Below, in pieces: positions 10,033 through 64,000 of a DNA stretch of 64,000 nucleotides. The position numbers and the translations under genes were made by a program. The notes under the pieces were generated by a model. That model saw nothing but the letters and a program-made list of their open reading frames with translations, was not told the origin of the DNA and did not search any database. The stretch's first letter is position 1; each line of letters begins with the position of its first letter. This stretch comes from Pseudeuparius sepicola (lineage: Eukaryota; Arthropoda; Insecta; Coleoptera; Anthribidae), in NCBI GenBank assembly GCA_963920635.1, contig OY987305.1:3325153-3389152 (forward strand). The letters are read 5' to 3'.

Positions 10033-10201
10033 ATTGAAGTATTAGCTATTTAAAATATGAATTGGCAATATACAATATACATATTAATTTTTAACTAAAA
10101 ATGACAATGTTTTAAATGACACATTGTATCATGAAATATATTATGGTGAACTATTGAACCTCTATATAAATTGTGTATTTATGCTTAATTATTCATATTA
10201 T

Positions 10202-10241
10202 CACAGACCTATATAGCTTAGCGAAGCTATATAGGTCTGTG
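10202..10241. mobile_element. 40-bp hairpin element with 7-bp duplication (copy 1)
   Basis: A palindrome of 40 bp. It begins CACAGACCTATATAGC, has a TTAG-centred turn, and ends with the complement. It is flanked by ATATTAT on both sides (10195-10201 and 10242-10248). The right duplication abuts the TA that precedes the foldback at 10250. Confidence 0.75.
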
Positions 10242-10249
10242 ATATTATA

Positions 10250-12048
10250 CAGGGTGGCCCACCACGAACTGTATCGATCAATATATGGAAAACTAAAAGT
10301 AGGAAAATTCTGAAAATTTGGCACCTCACCAATGCCGATGGGCGATGCTCAACTAAAATATTTTGGTGAATCTGGCACTTTCGGTTATACCGGAAGTCAA
10401 TATCAACTTTCTTATCTCAAATGGAACACCCTGTATATTATTGCATTTTTTGGATTCTAGGCATCCTTTTGGAACAAAAACATGCAATATGTCCTGTCTA
10501 AATCCAACCGTTTTTGAGATATTTGCATTTTTCCGAAAAAAATTACAGGTGCAGACCTAAAGTCAATTAGCAATTTATACGAGGAAACCGCGAAATTTCA
10601 AAACGAATTTTTGGCATCGTGTAACAGAAGCCCTGACCTAGTGACCTCTGCTGAGAAATAAATCCGTTCTTATACTAGGATTCTAGGCATCATCACAAAA
10701 TATGAATAAAAATTACATTCAAAATGTGCTTAAATCTGGAAATTTTCGAATGGAAACCCCCATTTTTTTAATGCGAACTTATTCACCACTAAAAATGATG
10801 TCAACTTTGTGTAAGGTTTCCTATACCTAAATGCAGTAATTTTCGATTCATTTACGAAAAACCCACTTTTCGCCTATAAAATGCGGGGTTTGCTTAACGC
10901 TTGGAAAATCATATTAGCCGTGGACGTGGAAAAGACAATCGCGGCTGAGGAAATGTCACTTGGTTTATAAATTATTGTCAACAATAATGCCGGCGCGTTT
11001 GAATCACACAAACGAAGATTATTTAATTTTGTTTATTATCTACGGAGAAAGCAACAAAGTAAAATCAAGAACGTGCGATACATTTGGGGCTCGCTATCCA
11101 CAAAAAACAAAACCGTCGCCAAACGTAATTTTTCTCTGACACGTCCATACTGTTTAAAATTTTGTATTATTTTTTTAACTGTGTTTGGCGACGGTTTTGT
11201 TTTTGTGGATAGCGAGCCCCAAATGTATCGCACGTTCTTGATATTACTTTGTTGCATTCTCCGTAGATAATAAACAAATTTAAATAATCTTCGTTTGTGT
11301 AATTTAAGCACGCCGGCATTATTGTTGACAATAATTTATAAACCAAGTGACATTTCCTCAGCCGCGATTGTCTTTTCCACGTCCACGGCTAATATGATTT
11401 TCCAAGCGTTAAGCAAACCCCGCATTTTATGGGCGAAAAGTGTTTTTTTCGTAAATTAATCGAAAATTACTGCATTTAGGTATAGGAAACCTTACACAAA
11501 GTTGACATAATTTTTAGTGGTGAATAAGATCGCATTAAAAAAAAATGGGGGTTTCCATTTGAAAATTTCGAGATTTAAGCACATTTTGAATGTAATTTTT
11601 ATTCATATTTTGGAACACCCTGTATAAGAACGGATTTATTTCTCAGCAGAGATCACTAGGTCAGGGTTTCTGTTACATGATGCCAAAAATTCGTTTTGAA
11701 ATTTCGCGGTTTCCTCGTATAGATTGCTAATTGACTTTAGGTCTGCACCTGTAATTTTTTTCGGAAAAATGCAAATATCTCAAAAACGGTTAGATTTAGA
11801 CATAGGACATGTTGCATGTTTTTGTTCCAAAATGATGCCTAGAATCCAAAAATGCAATAATATACAGGGTGTGCTATTTGAGATAAGAGAGTTGATATCG
11901 ACTTCCGGTATAACCGGAAGTGCCAGATTCACCAAAATATTTTAGTTGAGCAGCGCCCACCGGCATTGGTGAGGTGCCAAATTTTCAGAATTTTCCTACT
12001 TTTAGTTTTCCATATATAGATCGATGCAGTTCGTGGTGGGCCACCCTG
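10250..12048. mobile_element. 1.8-kb foldback element, CAGGGTG...CACCCTG, TA-flanked
   Basis: Two arms of about 870 bp (10250-11125 and 11179-12048) are near-complete inverted copies around a loop of about 53 nt. It begins CAGGGTGGCCCACCACGAAC and is flanked by TA at 10248-10249 and 12049-12050. Each arm carries the start of a transposase gene (next entry). It therefore looks like a head-to-head duplication of one transposon end. Confidence 0.88.
10987..11270. pseudogene. transposase N-terminal fragment, present in both foldback arms
   Basis: From the ATG at 10987 on the plus strand the left arm reads NHTNEDYLILFIIYGE then TFGARYPQKTKPSPN. The minus strand of the right arm reads the same protein and continues TVKKIIQNFKQYGRVREK. 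The pattern (acidic start, YGE, RYP, PS.NT, F..G.V) is that of the helix-turn-helix N-terminus (DUF4817 type) found in insect TA-inserting transposases. Only the N-terminus is present. Confidence 0.65.
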
Positions 12049-12490
12049 TATAAACATATACCTTTTTTAAAAGTGTTCTATTTATCTGCAATACTTTTTA
12101 TTGTATTATTTTGTTTTTATAATTTTAAATGTTGTATTTATTTATAAATATATTACATAATCTTTATGGTGTTTTTTATTTGTAGTGACAATAAACAAAA
12201 GCATGCTTTCAAAACATTTATTGTGAAAAATATGCGTGAACCATTTACCTTATAAAAATATCTTTAAAGCTGAATTCAGCTTTTCAATTGCACCTATAAG
12301 GTAAAAAAAAAACAAATAAAACTGAACTTTACTTCTAAAACTGAAAATTAAAAGGAGTATTCTGAACAAGCAACGTTTAAAATCAGTTATAAACCTATCA
12401 ATAAAAACGAAAAAATAAACTCAAATCTTATCCTAAAAAATTCAAAACAAACTTAACCCGAAAATTCTTCTGAATACAATCTGCAACATT
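12049..12490 (-). other. wash 3' flank
   Basis: AT-rich sequence downstream of the WASH stop; should include its 3' UTR. No further gene seen. Confidence 0.4.
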
Positions 12491-25960: not shown

Positions 25961-26524
25961 GTTAACCACATTTGACGTATAACGTCAATTTAACGTATTT
26001 TTATAACATAAAAAATACGTAAAGAAATTACGTTTCTAGAGTAGCGTTAAAATAACGTCATTATTTCGGCATCGTTAACCACATTTGATGTATAACGTCA
26101 ATTTAACGTATTTTTATAACATAAAAACTACGTAAAGAAATTACGTTCTAGAGTAGCATTAATATTACGTCATTACTACGATACCCAGCTAACCACGAAT
26201 TACCTATAACAACGTAACAAATACCTAGCTCAATTTACGGAAATATAACTTTATAAATACATCAAAAATGACATAATAAAAATAAGTAATAAAACTAGCG
26301 TCAATATTACGTTATTACAACGGTACAGATACTCCCGAATAAAAAAACTTGGAACAAGGTTTTTGGGAAATCACAATAGAGTCCTTTCCTCAGACGATTA
26401 AGATCCTTTTGGCTTTGTCCCTTCCGTTACATGAATTTTTAGGCACCTTTTATTTTATTTCTATTTATTTCTGTGACGTCATCGAGATTCTAGCTTACAC
26501 TGTTTTGGGCAATATTTTTCATGT

Positions 26525-26640
26525 GTTTCGATAGCTTAGTTGGTAAGAGCACAGACCTTAGCGAAGCTATATAGGTCTGTGGTAAGAGCGTCGACATTAA
26601 TTCCGATGTTCGTAGGTTCGAACCCTGGTGTTGGTGTGCG
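26525..26640 (+). repeat. tRNA-like core (SINE-type), interrupted
   Basis: An A-box-like AGCTTAGTTGGTAAGAGC with a D-stem and a B box GGTTCGAACCC. A 32-bp hairpin has been inserted in the D-arm side with a GTAAGAG duplication. The anticodon stem and acceptor do not pair well, so I read this as a tRNA-derived sequence, not a working tRNA gene. Confidence 0.6.
26550..26581. mobile_element. 32-bp hairpin element with 7-bp duplication (copy 2)
   Basis: Same sequence as 10202-10241 but lacking 8 nt (TATATAGC) of the left arm. Flanked by GTAAGAG on both sides (26543-26549, 26582-26588). Inserted in a tRNA-like sequence. Confidence 0.75.
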
Positions 26641-26865: not shown

Positions 26866-26886
26866 CACAGAGTTACGTTCTCTGTG
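26866..26886. repeat. 21-bp CACAGA...TCTGTG hairpin
   Basis: CACAGAG, then TTACGTT, then CTCTGTG. The GTTACGTT centre is shared with the 49382 hairpin. No matching flanks were found. Confidence 0.45.
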
Positions 26887-28084: not shown

Positions 28085-29245
28085 ACTTATAAATAATCCG
28101 AACTCCTTCTGATCTGAACTAATTTATAATCCGAACGCGCCAATTGCACCATAATAATGCCATAATCTGAATGTTTGGAAAATCCGAACAAAGTCTACCA
28201 ACTTTCTGTTCGGATTGTGGATATTATTTATTATGAATTCCATAATCCGAATGTTCAAACACGTTCGGATTATAATGCCATAATCCGAATGTTTGAACAC
28301 GTTAGGATTATAATGCCATAATCCAAACGTTCAAGCATGTCTGTATTATAATGCCATAATAATCTGAATGTTTGGCCAATGTTTACCAACTTTTTGTTCG
28401 GATTATGGATATTATTTATTATGAATTCCATAATCCGAATGTTCGAACACGTTTTGGATTATAATGCCATAATCTGAAAGTTTGGGCACTCCGAACAGGG
28501 TCTACCAACTTCCTGTTCGGATTATGGATATTATTTATTATGAATTCCATAATCTCAATGGTCGAACCCGTTCGGATTATAATGCCATAATCTGAATGTT
28601 CGGATGATAATGCCATAATCTGAATATTTGGCCAATCCGAACAGGGTCTACCAACTTTCTCTTCGGATTATGGATATTATTTATTACGAATTCCATAATC
28701 CGTATGTTTGAACACGTTCGGATTATAATGCCATAATATGAAAGTTTCGGCAATCGGAACGGGGTCTACCAACTTTCTGCTCGGATGATGGATTATAACG
28801 CCATAATCTGAAAGTTTGGGCACTCCGAACAGGGTCTACCAACTTTCTGTTCGGATTATGGATATTATTTATTATGAATTCCATAATCTCAATGGTCGAA
28901 CCCGTTCGGATTATAATGCCATAATCTGAATGTTCGGATGATAATGCCATAATCTGAATATTTGGCCAATCCGAACAGGGTCTACCAACTTTCTCTTCGG
29001 ATTATGGATATTATTTATTACGAATTCCATAATCCGTATGTTTGAACACGTTCGGATTATAATGCCATAATATGAAAGTTTCGGCAATCGGAACGGGGTC
29101 TACCAACTTTCTGCTCGGATGATGGATATTATTTATTATGAATTCCATAATCTCAATGGTCGAACCCGTTCGGATACATTCGGATTATAATGCCATAATC
29201 CAAAAATGTTAGAGCATGTCCGGATTATAATGCCATAATCTGCAC
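28085..29245. repeat. tandem array of palindromic TTCGGATTATGG units
   Basis: Built from variants of CCATAATCCGAA and its complement, with GGGTCTACCAACTT linkers. A higher-order unit of 334 bp is repeated almost exactly (start near 28489 and again near 28823). It ends about 100 bp beyond the moody stop codon, and most units contain AATAAA on the minus strand. Confidence 0.85.
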
Positions 29246-47652: not shown

Positions 47653-47698
47653 TTTGTTCGGGTGGAATCTTGCAACTCAATTTTGAAGCAGATATCTT

Positions 47699-48186
47699 CA
47701 ACCGATCGAGCTGAAATTTTGTACACACGTTTAATTTGGATGACAATGCATGATTATATGTGTGACGTCATTCTAAATCCAACATGGCGGATCACCCAAG
47801 ATGGCGGACTAGTTAAATTTCAACCGATCGAGCTGAAATTTTGTACACACGTTTAATTTGGATGACAATGCATGATTATATGTGTGACGTCATTCTAAAT
47901 CCAACATGGCGGAACACTCAAGATGGCGGACTAGTTAAATTTCAACCGATCGAGCTGAAATTTTGTACACACGTTTAATTTGGATGACAATGCATGATTA
48001 TATGTGTGACGTCATTCTAAATCCAACATGGCGGAACACTCAAGATGGCGGACTAGTTAAATTTCAACCGATCGAGCTGAAATTTTGTACACACGTTTAA
48101 TTTGGATGACAATGCATGATTATATGTGTGACGTCATTCTAAATCCAACATGGCGGAACACCCAAGATGGCGGACTAGTTAACTTT
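47699..48186. repeat. 122-bp minisatellite, four copies
   Basis: Units start at 47699, 47821, 47943 and 48065 with CAACCGATCGAGCTGAAA and differ by one or two bases. Each contains TGTGACGTCA and two ATGGCGG motifs. Minisatellites are common inside Helentron-type elements. Confidence 0.95.
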
Positions 48187-49298: not shown

Positions 49299-49381
49299 TA
49301 CAGGGTGTTCCGGTTTGTTTGGGGAAAACTTTAACAGATGATAGAAAAACTCATTTTAAGGTTGGTTTTATTTCATATAAG
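49299..49381. mobile_element. unpaired CAGGGTGTTCC foldback end
   Basis: TACAGGGTGTTCCGG just right of the hAT duplication. No opposite end found within 2 kb. Confidence 0.45.
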
Positions 49382-49406
49382 CACAGATAAGGTTACGTTA
49401 TCTGTG
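49382..49406. mobile_element. 25-bp hairpin element with 7-bp duplication (copy 3)
   Basis: CACAGATAA, centre GGTTACG, then TTATCTGTG. Flanked by ATATAAG on both sides (49375-49381, 49407-49413). Confidence 0.72.
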
Positions 49407-49815
49407 ATATAAGTAAACATAGGTCCGAAAGTTATTCGTTTCTGAGACACAGGGCGTTGTAGTTGTCTTTTTGAAATTGAATTAAGTATGGCAATATCTC
49501 CCAAAATAATCGATCTGCTGAACTGAAATTCGGCACTGCATATGTGTTTGGGTATGGAGAATAAGCTGAAACTGTCAATTTCTACGTATCTCACAGAGGG
49601 CGCCACTTGCGCTATTTTTGGATGGTGCTTTTACTCGTAACTTTTTTGAGGTTATCTTTTTGGTCTTGCAGATCCATCATTTTAGTGCATCTTTTTATTC
49701 TGCAACAGAAAGGTAGGTACACCTACAAGTCACTTGAAACAGCATAAAAAACTCTAATTGGCGCCATAAAAAGAATATAGGACATAAGCGTCACGCAGTT
49801 TTCAAAAATATACAT

Positions 49816-57459: not shown

Positions 57460-58114
57460 CTGTAAACCAAATATTGTTACTAAAAATAAAACGCATATCG
57501 AAACACCTAAGCCACATTTACGACATTCATTAGGCAACTTTGGGTTCACTCCTGTCTTCAATCGAAGGAACTCCAAGCAGAAAACTAGACAAAAAGATGT
57601 TCATGCCACCCCAAACACGCATAATATACAACATGCAATGCAAGAAAGGTATAATATTACACAATATTTGTTGACCTGTTTGTTCTTCTCGTTCTCGAAA
57701 AATACAGTCAGGCCAGCCAAATACATCGAACATTGATGCAACGTCATTTACCTAGGAAATATTTAAGTTGGACGCCACAGTTTTTTATCGTTTTGTTTTT
57801 TAGCCGATATTGAGCAAATGACTGTGTTATAAATGGGATCACAACAAAAAGATAATTGTTTAAAATCAATTAAACGCACTATCTATAATTTACAACCTAA
57901 AAATAGTAATAAAATAGTTCCTAGGCACAAATCATGCGAAATGTTAAAATAAGTATAAATAAATAATATCGATTTTGTAGTAGAGAATTCAACGCCTGCC
58001 AAGATGAACCAATGAAATGACATAATTTGTGAAACATTAACCAATCAGGTGATGACTTCAGCGATAATACCACTAGGTATTATTGCTGAAATCCTACTCT
58101 CAGTTACGCTAAAC
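57460..58114. other. Ca-alpha1D intron or flank
   Basis: No further exon that I can support, on either strand. Confidence 0.4.
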
Positions 58115-58154
58115 CACAGTTAAAAGAAGATATATTATATTCTTTTAAACTGTG
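58115..58154. mobile_element. 40-bp hairpin element with 7-bp duplication (copy 4)
   Basis: Starts CACAGTTAAAAGAAGATATA, ends TTCTTTTAAACTGTG; flanked by GCTAAAC on both sides (58108-58114, 58155-58161). The arm sequence differs from copy 1 but length and CACAG/CTGTG ends are the same. Confidence 0.75.
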
Positions 58155-58369
58155 GCTAAACCATTGAGGTAGCTAAAACTGATAGGTAACCCGATAACTT
58201 CTTCACAGTATCAAATTTAATATAGGACTAGAAGAAACAATTTCGGTTAAAAAACAACAAAAAATATATTAAAAACTGAAGGCTCATCCTAAATGATATA
58301 TTTCAACTTTTAAGCATGGTGATTAAATTTAAATGCAGCTAGTTAAGTAAATTTTATATGGACGCACAA

Positions 58370-59196: not shown

Positions 59197-60522
59197 CAGG
59201 GTGTCCCTCAAATAGCGCGCAATGATTTGTCAGCGTGTTCTGCTACTTAAAAAAATTAAAAAAGTTCCTATAAACATATGGACTCAAAAATGCCCCCTGA
59301 GGGCGCTATAGCCCCCGAAATGGACACTTTGACAAACGATTATTTTTAAAATAATCATTTAAAAAACGATCAAGATAAAATTCTGAAATTTGGTATGTTA
59401 AGTACAGGGTGGCCCAGATACCATGTCCTATCCCCTTATCTCGAGAATTTGGGCAGATACGGAAAAAAGTTTCATACAAAAGTTGTTTACAATCAAGAGA
59501 AATTCTTATTTTTTAAGGTTTGATGTAAACAGGGTGTTGCAAAATTATCGAAAAACACCAAAGTTATGTTTTTTAAATGTAATGGCCCTCTTTTTTATAC
59601 ACTTTTTTGTTTTTGAAGATCGGTTGCGGCGTTGCCAAGTTATTAGATATTTCCTATAATTGCAGACATTTGGAAAATCTCTGATATTCCCGTTTCTGAT
59701 GCATACTTTTCAAAGTTTAGTTATATGGGGATAACTATTAGTACCCCCTATAGTATGGTGTAGCCAAAGTTTAATTTAGCTATACAGGGCCTTCAATTAT
59801 GATCGCCATTTTTTGTTATTTGGAAGAGGCCATAACTTTTGTTTTTCAAATATAACGACCACTTTTTGATTATGCTAGACGATTCTACTGTTCAATAATT
59901 ACAATTTACTATATCGGCGTTATATTAAATTTTTTTATAGTTTTTGAATGATTTTCAAGTATTTGTTTTTTCATTGATTTATTGGCGGTTTGTCGAACCC
60001 CAAACATGGTCTCTTATTTTCCCCTTATTATGCATCTTTATATTATGCTCCAACTTTTTAAAATTGTAAATAACATATGTAAAACAAAACGCACACAATT
60101 GCTTTTGCCATGGCAAACTAAATATGGTGTCCTATTGTTATAATAACTAGCAACAATAGTAACATAAGTAAAAATTCGTTAAAAGTGATAAAATTTTCTC
60201 AATTCTCTCAATTCAACATACCTTTACAAAAAGCTAAATTTGATTGCCGATGAAGAAATTCAATTAAGACTTCTTCTCTATGATGAAGAATATCAAACTA
60301 TCTCTAGCTCTACCCTAATATGCACATACCTACCAAATTTCAGAATTTTGCCTTTGTTCGTTCTGTAAATATTTAGAGAAAACCGTTTGCCAAAGTGTCC
60401 ATTTCGGGGGCTATAGCCCCCTTTGGGGGCATTTTTTGGTCATGTTTATAGGAACTTTTTTTATTTTTTTGGGACGCAGAACGCGCTGACAAATTATTGC
60501 ACGCTAGTTTCGGGACACCCTG
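59197..60522. mobile_element. 1.3-kb foldback element, CAGGGTGTCCC ends
   Basis: TA-flanked (59195-59196, 60523-60524). Arms share GCGCTATAGCCCCCGAAATG-like sequence, GTTCCTATAAAC and AATGGACACTTTG. Further CAGGGTGGCCC and CAGGGCC ends inside (59405, 59785) indicate nested copies. Confidence 0.85.
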
Positions 60523-60842
60523 TATAAATTGGACACTCCTACGAATTTCAGCAAAATTTTGATAGGCCAAAGGCTACAGAAACGAGAAAAAAAAAATCAT
60601 TTAAATTTTACTATTTTTTCGTATACTATTTTTTTCGTATACCAAACTTTATATGTTGTGTCATTAAAAACGCTATTTGCATTTTCCTCTCGTTTTCTGT
60701 GATATTTGGCATCGCAAACAGGATTGGATAAACATAAATGTTTGATTGCAATCCGTATACACTGCAATTGCTTTGTACATCGGGTCACAGAACTCTATAC
60801 TAGGGCAAAATCGATGATATTAGGGATGAGCTACAAGCTAAA

Positions 60843-61068
60843 CAAAGGGTGTTCCAATCAAAACTAACTCACAAAATAAATATTTGGCTTTTCCTAGAAA
60901 TACAGACACTAGAAATCGTTCATTTAATGATATAAACGAGCTAGTGGAATTTTCTTAATTTTTTAGGCAATTTTAAAGTTTCGGAAAATATAAAAGTATT
61001 TCCATTTGTTTTATAATTAAAAAATGCGTTAAAAAATTTGTTATGTGAGTTTTATTACAAACACCCTG
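60843..61068. mobile_element. 0.23-kb element with (C)AGGGTGTT ends
   Basis: Left AAAGGGTGTTCCAATCAAAAC, right TTGTTATGTGAGTTTTATTA then CAAACACCCTG and TA (61069-61070). The smallest member of the CAGGGTG group here. Confidence 0.65.
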
Positions 61069-61070
61069 TA

Positions 61071-61653
61071 TGTATTTACTTATATTTATATAATAAACCA
61101 TACACAAATGTATTGTTGCTATTATTTTTAACGGTCAAATAAATATGATGTGTATATATCAAAAGCAATAACCTAAAAGAGTGCCTGTGAGGATGGGAGT
61201 AAGTATAGGTACCTAATTAAATTTGTAGCACCACCAAAAGTTTTCCATCCTCATGGAACACCCTTATAACATTCTCAAGTTTCTTATATGCATTCACATC
61301 TAATAACAAAAACTGTATAAGGACACATATTTTATTTTGCTTATTTTGCAAAAAACGCGTGAACAGACAAATTTATTTCCAAAATTTTGAAAAATAAGCA
61401 AAATTGTAGCGTTGCCAAGTACTTAGATATTTCGTGAATCAAATTTAGCGATAAATTAAAATATTTGGAAACGCTGCCTAGCTAATAGTCAACCGAAAAT
61501 TATTTTGTTGGAATCGTGGAGAAACATCACATGCGCTTTATTGTTAATAATATAGTTTTGAATTTTTTGAACTCTTTAATTAATTGTCTAGAAAACATAA
61601 TAAATTACAGAAATGCATTACTCACGACATAATTGTATGTTTGCTATCAAAAT
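61071..61653. other. no feature seen
   Basis: AT-rich, no gene. Confidence 0.4.
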
Positions 61654-61661
61654 GTACGTAC

Positions 61662-62639
61662 TAGGGAGTCCAATCCCGGGATTCCGGAATCCCGGCCTTT
61701 TTCCAATTTCGGGATCCCGGGATTAAAATATTAGATCCCGGGATTTCAATGTATGTAGTTAGCCTTTATTTTTGGAGCATGCATGTGAAAAACTCTTTTT
61801 TAGTTGATTATTTCCTATTTGCTGCCTATAATTCGCCAGCATAGCATCTGTAATTCCCCTAATAGCGATATTTTGCGCTATTTCTATAAAATCTAGAATA
61901 ATCTTTTTTAGTTAGATTTTTTAAAAGATATATAAGGTACAGTTCTGTATCGAATTTTATGGTTTCAGTTTCAATTTCTGGAATATAAAGTAAGAAAAAG
62001 ACGAATATCCTTCTAAAAATTGACAATAATACAATACGAATACGAATAATTGACAATAATACAATACGAATACGAATAATTGACAATAATACAATACGAA
62101 TACATTTTCTTAATAACCTTTTCCGATTTCCAAGATAATACCCATTTTTCCACCAACGTATATAGCCCGACATCACATTGTCAAAAAATCTAATAATAAA
62201 AATTTTTGGTGCAAAGTTTATGAATAGCATTGTATTTTCTGTGGATTTTTCTAATTTTTGTTTACCTATTTCAATTCAACTAAACACAGTAGACGGCAAT
62301 ATTTCACAAAGAAAAGATTTCGGAAAATTTTCTTTTCCCACTTTTTTCTTAGAAAAGCGTCCTTGCTAAAGCTTTCACGTCAAAATATTATTAAGGAAAC
62401 TTGTTTATCCTGAAAAAAATATCATTTTTAACGATATTTATTATAACCTTGACGAAGCGAAACGCGCGTCAATTTTATAATAAATATTGAGCAAGTTTTA
62501 AAATGAAAATGTTTTATATTTTATCTACATTACTGTAACTATTAAAAAATATCAATTTAATAAAAATCTTGGGATTGAGTCCCGAGATCCCAGGATTTGC
62601 ATTTGAAAATCACAGACTTTTTCGGGATTGGATTACCTA
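61662..62639. mobile_element. hAT-like element, TAGGGAGTCCAATCCCG ends
   Basis: Right end is the complement of TAGGTAATCCAATCCCG. Flanks GTACGTAC and GTACCTAT match at 6 of 8. The ends are full of GGGATCCCGGGAT motifs. A 30-bp unit (TTGACAATAATACAATACG...) is repeated three times at 62019-62102. Confidence 0.72.
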
Positions 62640-63016
62640 GTACCTATAATTACCCAAAACGATATTTATCTAAGAAAAAGCATTTAAATTTATCCTTTCT
62701 TTAAAATAGGGGACCCTACGTATGTAAAATAAGTTTTTTCGATATTTCGGTAAGTGGCGTTTTCTTTTGGTAATTGTCAAATTTGACAGTTACTGCAAGT
62801 CACTTTTAGATGACCAAACTGTAACAGGTGATAGATCTTCAAAAAATAACCCGCAATTTCTCGAACAAAATGTATATTTTTTAAGCCTTTTTTTAGCAAA
62901 CGTTGAGATATTTATAGATTTTAATTATAAACAAAAATGCCCTCTTGGCAATTTTTCGTATGTCTCATGGTTTCATGGCAAATTTGATTTTTTTGTATTA
63001 CCTATGATAGGATACA

Positions 63017-64000
63017 CAGGGTGATTCACGTAAGTGGTTCATTAGAAGTTTACGGGGAAGGAGTGCGAATTTTAATTTGAAACTTTGGTTACTTATATAA
63101 CAGGTTGTAAACTTTCTTTCTAAAATATTTTCAACTTCCGATGACTTCCGGTTATACCGGAAGTCGATAGCAACTTTGTTATTTCAAATAGAACACCCTA
63201 TATATTATTACACCATTTGGTTCCCTATTAAATTCCAAATCTTTTTTCTGAATATAATGTGTACCCTATTCCTAACCCTTTTCGAGATATACGCAAATTT
63301 TTGATTTTTTTGAGTGTTGCAGCCATCGACCATACTGATGATACACTTTGAAATTTATGAATCTGGAAAACTGAAATTTTGGACTGTCGTAGGCGAAAGC
63401 CAACTTTATTAAATGGTCTGTATGCCATTTTAAAATATTGTACAGGGTGTTCGGGAAAAAATTCCCAATATCAACATCGAAAAATTGAAAAATCTCATTT
63501 TTTTCAAATGGAACCCATATTTTTTTATTGCACCATTGAAATGCTTGTGAAAAGACAGTTCAAAAAGATATAACACACTCTATGTCTAAATGAAGCGGTT
63601 GCTTCGTTATTACGCAAAATACGTATTTTTGCTGCTCCATATCAAGAAACAACGGACCTTTTCTAATAGGCGGTCATGGATTTTTCATTTGTGATTGTCA
63701 TTTATTGTGTTCCAAACAATAAAATATTAACTGTTGACAAGAATGGCTCAAATTAACTATTCCAACGAAGATATTTTGAATATGTTTTACACTCATGGAG
63801 AGTGTAAAAGAATTCTAGAAAGAACAATAATTATTAATGAAAGGCATTTACATTTACCACCTTTGATGAAAAGAAAATTCAGAAACTTCGAACGAAATTT
63901 CATAGTCCATGGCAAGGTCCAAACAAAGAGAAGCAAATGTAAATACGCAACAGGTAAATAGCATAATATGAATAACGTCTTTTATCTTATATGTAGTTTC
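63017..64000 (+). mobile_element. composite transposon copy matching 54479-55870, runs off the right edge
   Basis: Begins CAGGGTGATTCACGTAAGTG as at 54479 and continues with the full arm that 54479 lacks. At 63445 the inner CAGGGTGTTCGGG element starts at the same site as at 54584. It then leads into a transposase exon. Confidence 0.8.
63743..63953 (+). CDS. transposase first exon of the CAGGGTG family
   Basis: ATG at 63743. MAQINYSNEDILNMFYTHGE, then [39 protein letters not shown], ending CAACAG/GTAAAT. The order (NxEDil.m...yGEc, a basic linker, nF...G.V) matches the HTH N-terminus in the 10250 foldback. It is probably the source-type sequence from which the foldbacks derive; the catalytic exon is outside the window. 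Confidence 0.6.

What the first reader, a model, noticed from the sequence alone, without database searches (positions are those of the whole stretch)
10202..10241. A family of 25-40 bp palindromes with exact 7-bp target duplications
Four hairpins in this window start CACAG and end CTGTG, and each is flanked by an exact 7-bp direct repeat: 10202-10241 (ATATTAT), 26550-26581 (GTAAGAG), 49382-49406 (ATATAAG), 58115-58154 (GCTAAAC). Two are exactly 40 bp. Four independent 7-bp matches are very unlikely by chance. The duplicated sites share a purine at position 1, a pyrimidine at 2 and A at 6. Such elements are far smaller than normal MITEs and consist only of a hairpin; 7-bp duplications are rare among known DNA transposon superfamilies. 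They may be the minimal DNA product of an undescribed transposase, or a hairpin inserted during repair.
Basis: partly seen in the sequence, partly recalled or inferred. Interest (0 to 1): 0.92.

Follow-up and report, generated by a model that had tools for sequence, protein, structure and literature searches.

The report
Scars left by excised P-type transposons
The small hairpins are best explained not as jumping elements themselves but as repair scars in a beetle genome, left where larger cut-and-paste transposons of the fruit-fly P-element kind jumped out and left behind both copies of their 7-base target and the joined tips of the element.

Summary
In detail: four CACAG…CTGTG hairpins, each between exact 7-bp repeats, none seen in the chance controls. 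They are best read as excision scars of P-type transposons, not as mobile hairpins. The beetle-like 769-Mb genome holds 167 identical copies of hairpin 1 and 2264 of its 18-nt arm. Long elements with that end exist: 4577 and 4586 bp, 7-bp duplications GTAGGGG and CTAACAT. Hairpin 3 carries the end of a second family: of nine 2.0-2.35-kb elements read, 7 have exact 7-bp duplications and 2 match at 6/7. A third, coding family has CACAG ends, 8-bp duplications and an 821-aa P-type transposase. The hairpins have the anatomy of sequenced P-excision junctions: duplication, up to 17 nt of each end, short filler, duplication (PMC2895639). The uninterrupted form of hairpin 2's site exists at 40 of 40 scored loci. 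Open: family A keeps up to 23-24 nt of one end; no transposase was found in its two long copies; hairpin 4 is assigned by anatomy only.

The parts
10195..10248 (.). Hairpin 1 (10202-10241, 40 bp) with 7-bp duplication ATATTAT on both sides: family A scar, matching 18 nt of one end and 23 nt of the other (overlap 1 nt)
26543..26588 (.). Hairpin 2 (26550-26581, 32 bp) with GTAAGAG duplicated: family A scar, 9 nt of one end and 23 nt of the other, inside a tRNA-derived (SINE-like) repeat
   Evidence: site without insertion at 40 of 40 scored loci
49375..49413 (.). Hairpin 3 (49382-49406, 25 bp) with ATATAAG duplicated: family C scar, 9 nt of one end and 16 nt (all that was tested) of the other
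58108..58161 (.). Hairpin 4 (58115-58154, 40 bp) with GCTAAAC duplicated: taken as a scar by anatomy; the tested 18-nt end occurs nowhere else in the genome
26866..26886 (.). Hairpin 5 (21 bp, CACAGAG…CTCTGTG) without flank duplication; its end differs from that of family C at one of 14 bases; possible scar that lost its duplication
26525..26640 (+). tRNA-derived repeat that carries hairpin 2 in its D-arm region; end coordinate approximate
   Evidence: (RF00005 at 26525-26598, 21.3 bits, below the gathering score of 29)

Best explanation
Each hairpin is an excision scar (footprint) of a cut-and-paste transposon with CACAG ends, of the P-element kind. An element of kilobase size inserted and duplicated 7 bp of target. 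A transposase later cut it out with a long stagger, leaving on both sides of the break the outer 17 or so nucleotides of the inverted repeat. End joining (microhomology, trimming, short filler) sealed the break, so both target copies remain with two inverted end pieces back to back: a hairpin. Shown: for hairpins 1-3, long elements with the same ends and the same duplication length; variable centres with constant outer ends; P transposase genes in a CACAG-ended family of the same genome; insertion at the site of hairpin 2 by comparison with other copies of the repeat. Inferred: that a P-type transposase acts on families A and C, the staggered cut itself, and the same origin for hairpin 4.
For: Family A long elements with the end of hairpins 1 and 2: C1:14728873-14733449, 4577 bp, GTAGGGG on both sides; C2:38904978-38909563, 4586 bp, CTAACAT on both sides; two ends 9.7 kb apart with ATATCAG on both outer sides (C1:9611929 and C1:9621646). 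Family C end CACAGATAACGTAACC: 646 hits, reversed control 1; of 10 convergent pairs whose ends I read, 7 have exact 7-bp duplications, 2 match at 6/7 (my reading of the printed flanks) and 1, the only 12-kb pair, is not such an element. P transposase family PF12017 in the own genome: 150 matches scored out of 849 candidates, every listed row over the cut-off; 0 of 14 control genomes, whose identity I do not know. One such element, read at two loci, 4597 bp, has perfect 20-nt CACAG end repeats and 8-bp duplications and an 821-aa ORF with P-type HTH, RNase H, GTP-binding and THAP9 C-terminal domains, matching Drosophila P transposase 6p5a at E 2.6e-22. Scar spectrum: of 41 arm hits in 37 loci, 25 (22 distinct scars, three met from both arms) are hairpin scars of 29-61 bp with a 7-bp duplication, 22 of the 25 exact; 3 are ends of long elements; 13 unresolved. 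Laboratory P-excision junctions have the same anatomy (PMC2895639, sections 7 and 9 read): of the 66 isolates listed in Table 1 I entered 63; 63 keep both target copies and 37 have palindromic arms of 8 nt or more, lengths 4-44 bp. 17-nt stagger: PMC7776569, section 7 read. Empty site of hairpin 2: 40 of 40 scored loci, 97-99% identical.
Against: The 40-bp form of hairpin 1 is very regular: 167 identical copies, whereas the commonest hairpin-forming junction in the Drosophila table is 14 of 66. 15 of the 22 distinct sampled family A scars keep 23 or 24 nt of one end, more than the 17 nt of Drosophila P. The coding family makes 8-bp, families A and C 7-bp duplications, and its 821-aa ORF shows no THAP zinc-finger match at E 0.001. 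The two long A copies show no transposase: no match of the 821-aa protein and no Pfam match in 10 of the 12 listed frames of one copy's interior; frames of the other copy and interiors of family C were not scanned. Hairpin 4 has no long partner. 13 of 41 sampled hits stayed unresolved.
Confidence: 0.92

Rival explanations
1. The 25-40 bp hairpin is itself mobile: a minimal non-autonomous element moved whole by a transposase that reads CACAG ends.
For: 167 identical 40-mers; 25 of those read, in loci L126-L163, each have an exact 7-bp repeat, mostly of differing sequence; tandem and nested hairpins such as CTATAAT-hairpin-CTATAAT-hairpin-CTATAAT (L129).
Against: Long elements with the same ends and duplication length exist; centres vary from site to site while the ends do not, as in repair junctions; the 32-bp form occurs 4 times against 167 for the 40-mer; hairpin 4's end does not recur. 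P transposase binds sites inside the element (PMC7776569), which a 40-mer would lack (inference).
Confidence: 0.05
2. The hairpins are extreme internal deletions: after excision, gap repair copied only the outermost bases back from another copy and was then aborted and end-joined, rather than direct joining of the overhangs.
For: Family A arms reach 23-24 nt, beyond 17 nt; PMC2895639 states that most wild-type products come from incomplete synthesis followed by end joining (passage).
Against: 15 of 22 distinct sampled scars stop at 23 or 24 nt although the end repeat goes on to at least 28 nt; aborted synthesis should stop at varied places.
Confidence: 0.15
3. Chance palindromes or ordinary MITEs.
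For: A 252-bp MITE-like element with CACAG ends exists (L128:5321-5572, duplication ATATAAG).
Against: 0 in 40 simulated windows and 0 in 1.06 Mb of unrelated DNA; a 25-40 bp hairpin has no interior.
Confidence: 0.01

Closest known systems
Drosophila P-element excision junctions (PMC2895639, Tables 1-3; sections 7 and 9 read)
   Same: Both target copies kept, inverted end pieces back to back, microhomology or short filler between them; 4-44 bp in the 63 of 66 Table 1 isolates entered
   Different: 8-bp instead of 7-bp duplication; at most 17 nt kept per end, family A here up to 23-24; laboratory events, here natural and very numerous
Galileo (P superfamily, Foldback-like; PMC2775673 and PMC4168063, passages seen)
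   Same: 7-bp duplications with GTANTAC-like targets; long internally repetitive elements: the two A copies share repeats at roughly 240-bp steps in both orientations
   Different: Ends here begin CACAG; no transposase seen in the two A copies; the passages describe Galileo from Drosophila
Zebrafish Pdre2/THAP9 elements (PMC10983969, passages seen)
   Same: P superfamily, ends beginning CA, THAP9-type domains as in the 821-aa ORF here
   Different: 8-bp duplications and 13-bp end repeats CATACCTGTCAAC
P-derived MITEs of Anopheles gambiae (PMC1562414, passages seen)
   Same: Non-coding elements with P ends spread through an insect genome
   Different: 8-bp duplications and a central region; not scars

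Membership tests
P-element excision scar | Both target duplications retained around two inverted pieces of the element ends | tested here: met
P-element excision scar | Long element with identical ends and the same duplication length in the genome | tested here: met
   hairpins 1-2; hairpin 3. Not met for hairpin 4
P-element excision scar | Variable junction (trimming, microhomology, filler) between constant outer ends | tested here: met
P-element excision scar | Retained arm no longer than the 17-nt stagger | tested here: inconclusive
   hairpin 3: 16 of the 16 nt tested; family A: 23 or 24 nt in 15 of 22 distinct scars
P superfamily (families A and C) | Transposase with HTH, split RNase H and GTP-binding insertion | tested here: inconclusive
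   present in the CACAG-ended coding family of the same genome; not found in two A copies, partly scanned; C interiors not read
P superfamily | 7- or 8-bp target duplication | tested here: met
Galileo | Target consensus GTANTAC | tested here: met
   among 22 exact arm hits at 19 sites, T2 in 17 and A6 in 18
Galileo | Transposase of the Galileo clade | not tested
   no tree built
Self-standing hairpin MITE | No longer relatives with the same ends; variants multiply as units | tested here: not met
   the 167 identical 40-mers are the one point in its favour

The most novel reading that the evidence does not exclude
A Galileo-like foldback element of this beetle is cut with a longer or unequal stagger (about 23 nt at one end, 17 at the other), so that its excision leaves a near-programmed 40-bp hairpin; the genome thereby holds on the order of a thousand scars of one break type, a natural record of germline end joining.
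Probability: 0.3. Interest if true: 0.55.

Novelty: new member of a known kind. Interest (0 to 1): 0.4.

Why it matters
It turns a puzzle (hairpin-only 'elements') into a readable record. Exact 18-nt family A arms (2264) outnumber exact 28-nt intact ends (137) about 16 to 1, and among 41 sampled arm hits 25 were scars and 3 were ends of long elements, so much of what this family left in the genome is scars that annotation by element similarity could miss. The scars look like many separate repairs of one kind of break in a non-model germline, so microhomology use and filler synthesis could be measured there, and the cut position of an uncharacterised transposase inferred.

Tried and rejected
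Chance and composition: rejected. In one search low-complexity ends (ATATA 8, TATAT 6) had as many 7-bp-flanked pairs as CACAG (7, of 49 in all), so only the non-repetitive ends speak. Transib/RAG-like ends were considered from memory because of CAC; 5-bp duplications (recalled) do not fit. Dada elements (RNA-gene targets, 6-7 bp, recalled) were considered because hairpin 2 lies in a tRNA-derived repeat; I saw no such target for the other three. The first idea that all scars stop at 17 nt was not met for family A. The hairpin-as-element reading gained weight at the 167 identical copies and lost it when long elements with the same ends and duplication length were found. No P transposase was found in the 15 distinct window frames scanned (54 stop-to-stop frames of 95 aa or more exist). 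Overlap of the listed PF12017 loci with listed family A end pairs was looked for by eye only; none seen. No paper on natural genome-wide P-type scars was seen in the listings; that library lacks most subscription journals, and no repeat database was searched. ARAGORN did not settle the tRNA origin of hairpin 2's site (only weak, conflicting calls at a lowered threshold).

Sampling notes: one search scored 40 of 1002 candidates chosen by likeness to the 40-mer, so lengths are biased to 40 bp; L120-L125 repeat the centres of L126-L131. The sample covers 41 of the 45 consecutive hits listed from C1:384679 to C1:13452423; the other 4 hits are two exact 40-mer sites (C1:6854393, C1:9180577) not fetched; three scars were counted from both arms. 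Needing an intact 18-nt arm leaves out scars trimmed on both sides. Counts of convergent pairs are by eye on the listed places only.

Full report
OBSERVATION. The four hairpins and their exact 7-bp flank repeats are real and at the stated coordinates. A scan for CAC…GTG segments of 6-150 bp with an exact 7-bp flank repeat returns these four and nothing else in the window. Simulated windows gave 0 in 40, and 119 unrelated viral loci, 1.06 Mb, gave 0. Each of the four, folded as single-stranded DNA, beats 200 of 200 shuffles. A fifth hairpin, 26866-26886, lacks the duplication. The window is richer in them than other fetched DNA: 186 kb of flanks outside it gave one further case (L127) besides two query hits in L139.

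SETTING. The window holds cullin, HOOK and WASH-complex gene pieces and a reverse transcriptase fragment; the WASH protein is closest to beetles (Zophobas, Anoplophora, Tribolium, 53-55% identity). The genome held for it has 769 Mb in 16 contigs, the window being C11:3325153-3389152.

GENOME COPIES. The exact 40-bp hairpin 1 occurs 167 times (92 forward, 75 reverse; reversed control 0). In loci L126-L163, chosen by likeness to the 40-mer, 25 exact 40-mers lie between exact 7-bp repeats, in both orientations of their off-centre middle; others there have one or more differences in the repeat or a different centre. The 32-bp form of hairpin 2 occurs 4 times, the window's own included. The 18-nt arm occurs 2264 times.

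LONG ELEMENTS WITH THE SAME ENDS. Reading arm hits along contig 1 showed C1:14728873-14733449, 4577 bp, with end repeat CACAGACCTATATAGCTTCGCTACAGAC and GTAGGGG on both sides, and ends at C1:9611929 and C1:9621646 with ATATCAG on both outer sides. A further copy, C2:38904978-38909563, 4586 bp, has CTAACAT on both sides. The 28-nt end occurs 137 times; among the places listed I count by eye 19 convergent pairs 1.4 to 10.7 kb apart. The two A copies share repeats in both orientations; 10 of 12 listed frames of one interior gave no Pfam match, and neither copy gave a meaningful match to the P transposase below. For hairpin 3, the end CACAGATAACGTAACC occurs 646 times (reversed control 1), often as convergent pairs about 2.0-2.35 kb apart. 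Of 10 pairs read, 7 have exact 7-bp duplications; 2 match at 6 of 7; 1, the only 12-kb pair, has flanks that are reverse complements of each other and is not an element of this kind. Hairpin 4's tested 18-nt end occurs nowhere else.

THE TRANSPOSASE KIND. The P-element family PF12017 gave 150 scored matches of 849 candidates in the own genome, every listed row over its cut-off, and 0 of 14 control genomes. Two 99.8% identical 4597-bp copies have perfect 20-nt end repeats CACAGACTAAACAGACTTGC and 8-bp duplications GTAAGAAC and ATTCCAAC. Their 17-nt end occurs 10 times, including 4 convergent pairs about 4.6 kb apart. The 821-aa ORF carries RNase H, GTP-binding, HTH and THAP9 C-terminal domains of P transposases but no THAP zinc-finger match, and matches the solved Drosophila P transposase (6p5a, E 2.6e-22). 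So CACAG ends belong to at least one P-type family in this genome.

MECHANISM. Drosophila P transposase cuts one strand 17 nt inside the element and leaves 17-nt extensions (PMC7776569 section 7). End joining of such breaks gives target copy, up to 17 nt, microhomology or filler, up to 17 nt, target copy (PMC2895639 sections 7 and 9). Of 63 Table 1 isolates entered (66 listed; the paper's Figure 6 legend says 68 junctions), 63 keep both target copies and 37 have palindromic arms of at least 8 nt; lengths run from 4 to 44 bp. The hairpins fit: hairpin 3 has 9 nt of one family C end and 16 (all tested) of the other; hairpin 1 has 18 and 23 nt of family A, hairpin 2 has 9 and 23. In a nearly consecutive sample of 41 arm hits in 37 loci, 25 hits (22 distinct scars) are scars of 29-61 bp with a 7-bp duplication, 22 of the 25 exact; 3 are long-element ends; 13 are unresolved. 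The outer ends are constant and the centre differs, the signature of repair rather than of a copied unit. The 7-bp targets favour T at 2 (17 of 22 exact hits) and A at 6 (18 of 22), like Galileo's GTANTAC (PMC4168063, PMC2775673, passages).

EMPTY SITE. Hairpin 2 lies in the D-arm region of a tRNA-derived repeat (below the family's gathering score). The sequence with hairpin and one 7-bp copy left out matches 40 of 40 scored loci (of 555 candidates) at 97-99% over 86-89 of 89 bases. These are other copies of the repeat, not the same site in other animals; still, hairpin plus one repeat copy must have been gained here.

WHAT STAYS OPEN. 15 of 22 distinct sampled family A scars keep 23 or 24 nt of one end, and the 40-bp product is strikingly common. 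A longer or unequal cut, a preferred microhomology, or limited fill-in could each explain it; I could not decide. The transposase that moves A and C was not identified, and the coding family found makes 8-bp, not 7-bp, duplications. Hairpins 4 and 5 are assigned by anatomy.

VERDICT. A correct and acute observation. The thing is best explained as an excision scar of P-type transposons, a known kind of product, here in natural abundance and from families that I did not find described in the literature listings named under Tried and rejected; no repeat database was searched.

Noticed in passing
L129:4920-4994 (= L123:1501-1575); L131:4906-4985 (= L125:1491-1570): Two scars in tandem sharing one target: repeat-hairpin-repeat-hairpin-repeat (CTATAAT; CTAATAG). 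Looks like re-insertion into the already duplicated target followed by a second excision.
   Followed up: no
L166:345-384 and L207:4381-4420: Both long family A elements read carry an older hairpin with a 7-bp repeat about 244 bp inside one end, so scars can become part of elements and be multiplied with them.
   Followed up: partly
L226, L227 (C1:3760571 and C1:3772539): A single-arm trace ATATAAG-CACAGATAACGTAACC-ATATAAG sits at both ends of a 12-kb inverted arrangement; several other listed family C pairs are also about 12 kb apart.
   Followed up: no
L129:6287-6326: Perfect 40-bp CACAG…CTGTG palindrome of another sequence; flanks TCGAGAC/CTCGAGA are not an in-register duplication.
   Followed up: no
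L128:5321-5572: 252-bp MITE-like element with CACAGAGAATATC ends and 7-bp duplication ATATAAG.
   Followed up: no
window 10242-10441 and 11756-12053: Repeat with TACAGGGTG…CACCCTGTA ends; hairpin 1 lies at its border.
   Followed up: partly
window 60516-63449: CACCCTGTA…TACAGGGTG ends 2934 bp apart with an exact 7-bp flank repeat TTCGGGA.
   Followed up: no
window 26525-26640: tRNA-derived repeat with at least 40 near-identical loci in the genome.
   Followed up: partly
window 47697-48186; 28230-29175: Tandem arrays: a 122-bp unit, 4 copies at 98%, and overlapping units of 28-334 bp.
   Followed up: no
window 26013-26113: 101-bp segment with inverted ends flanked by a 12-bp direct repeat TTATAACATAAA, another insertion-like structure.
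   Followed up: no
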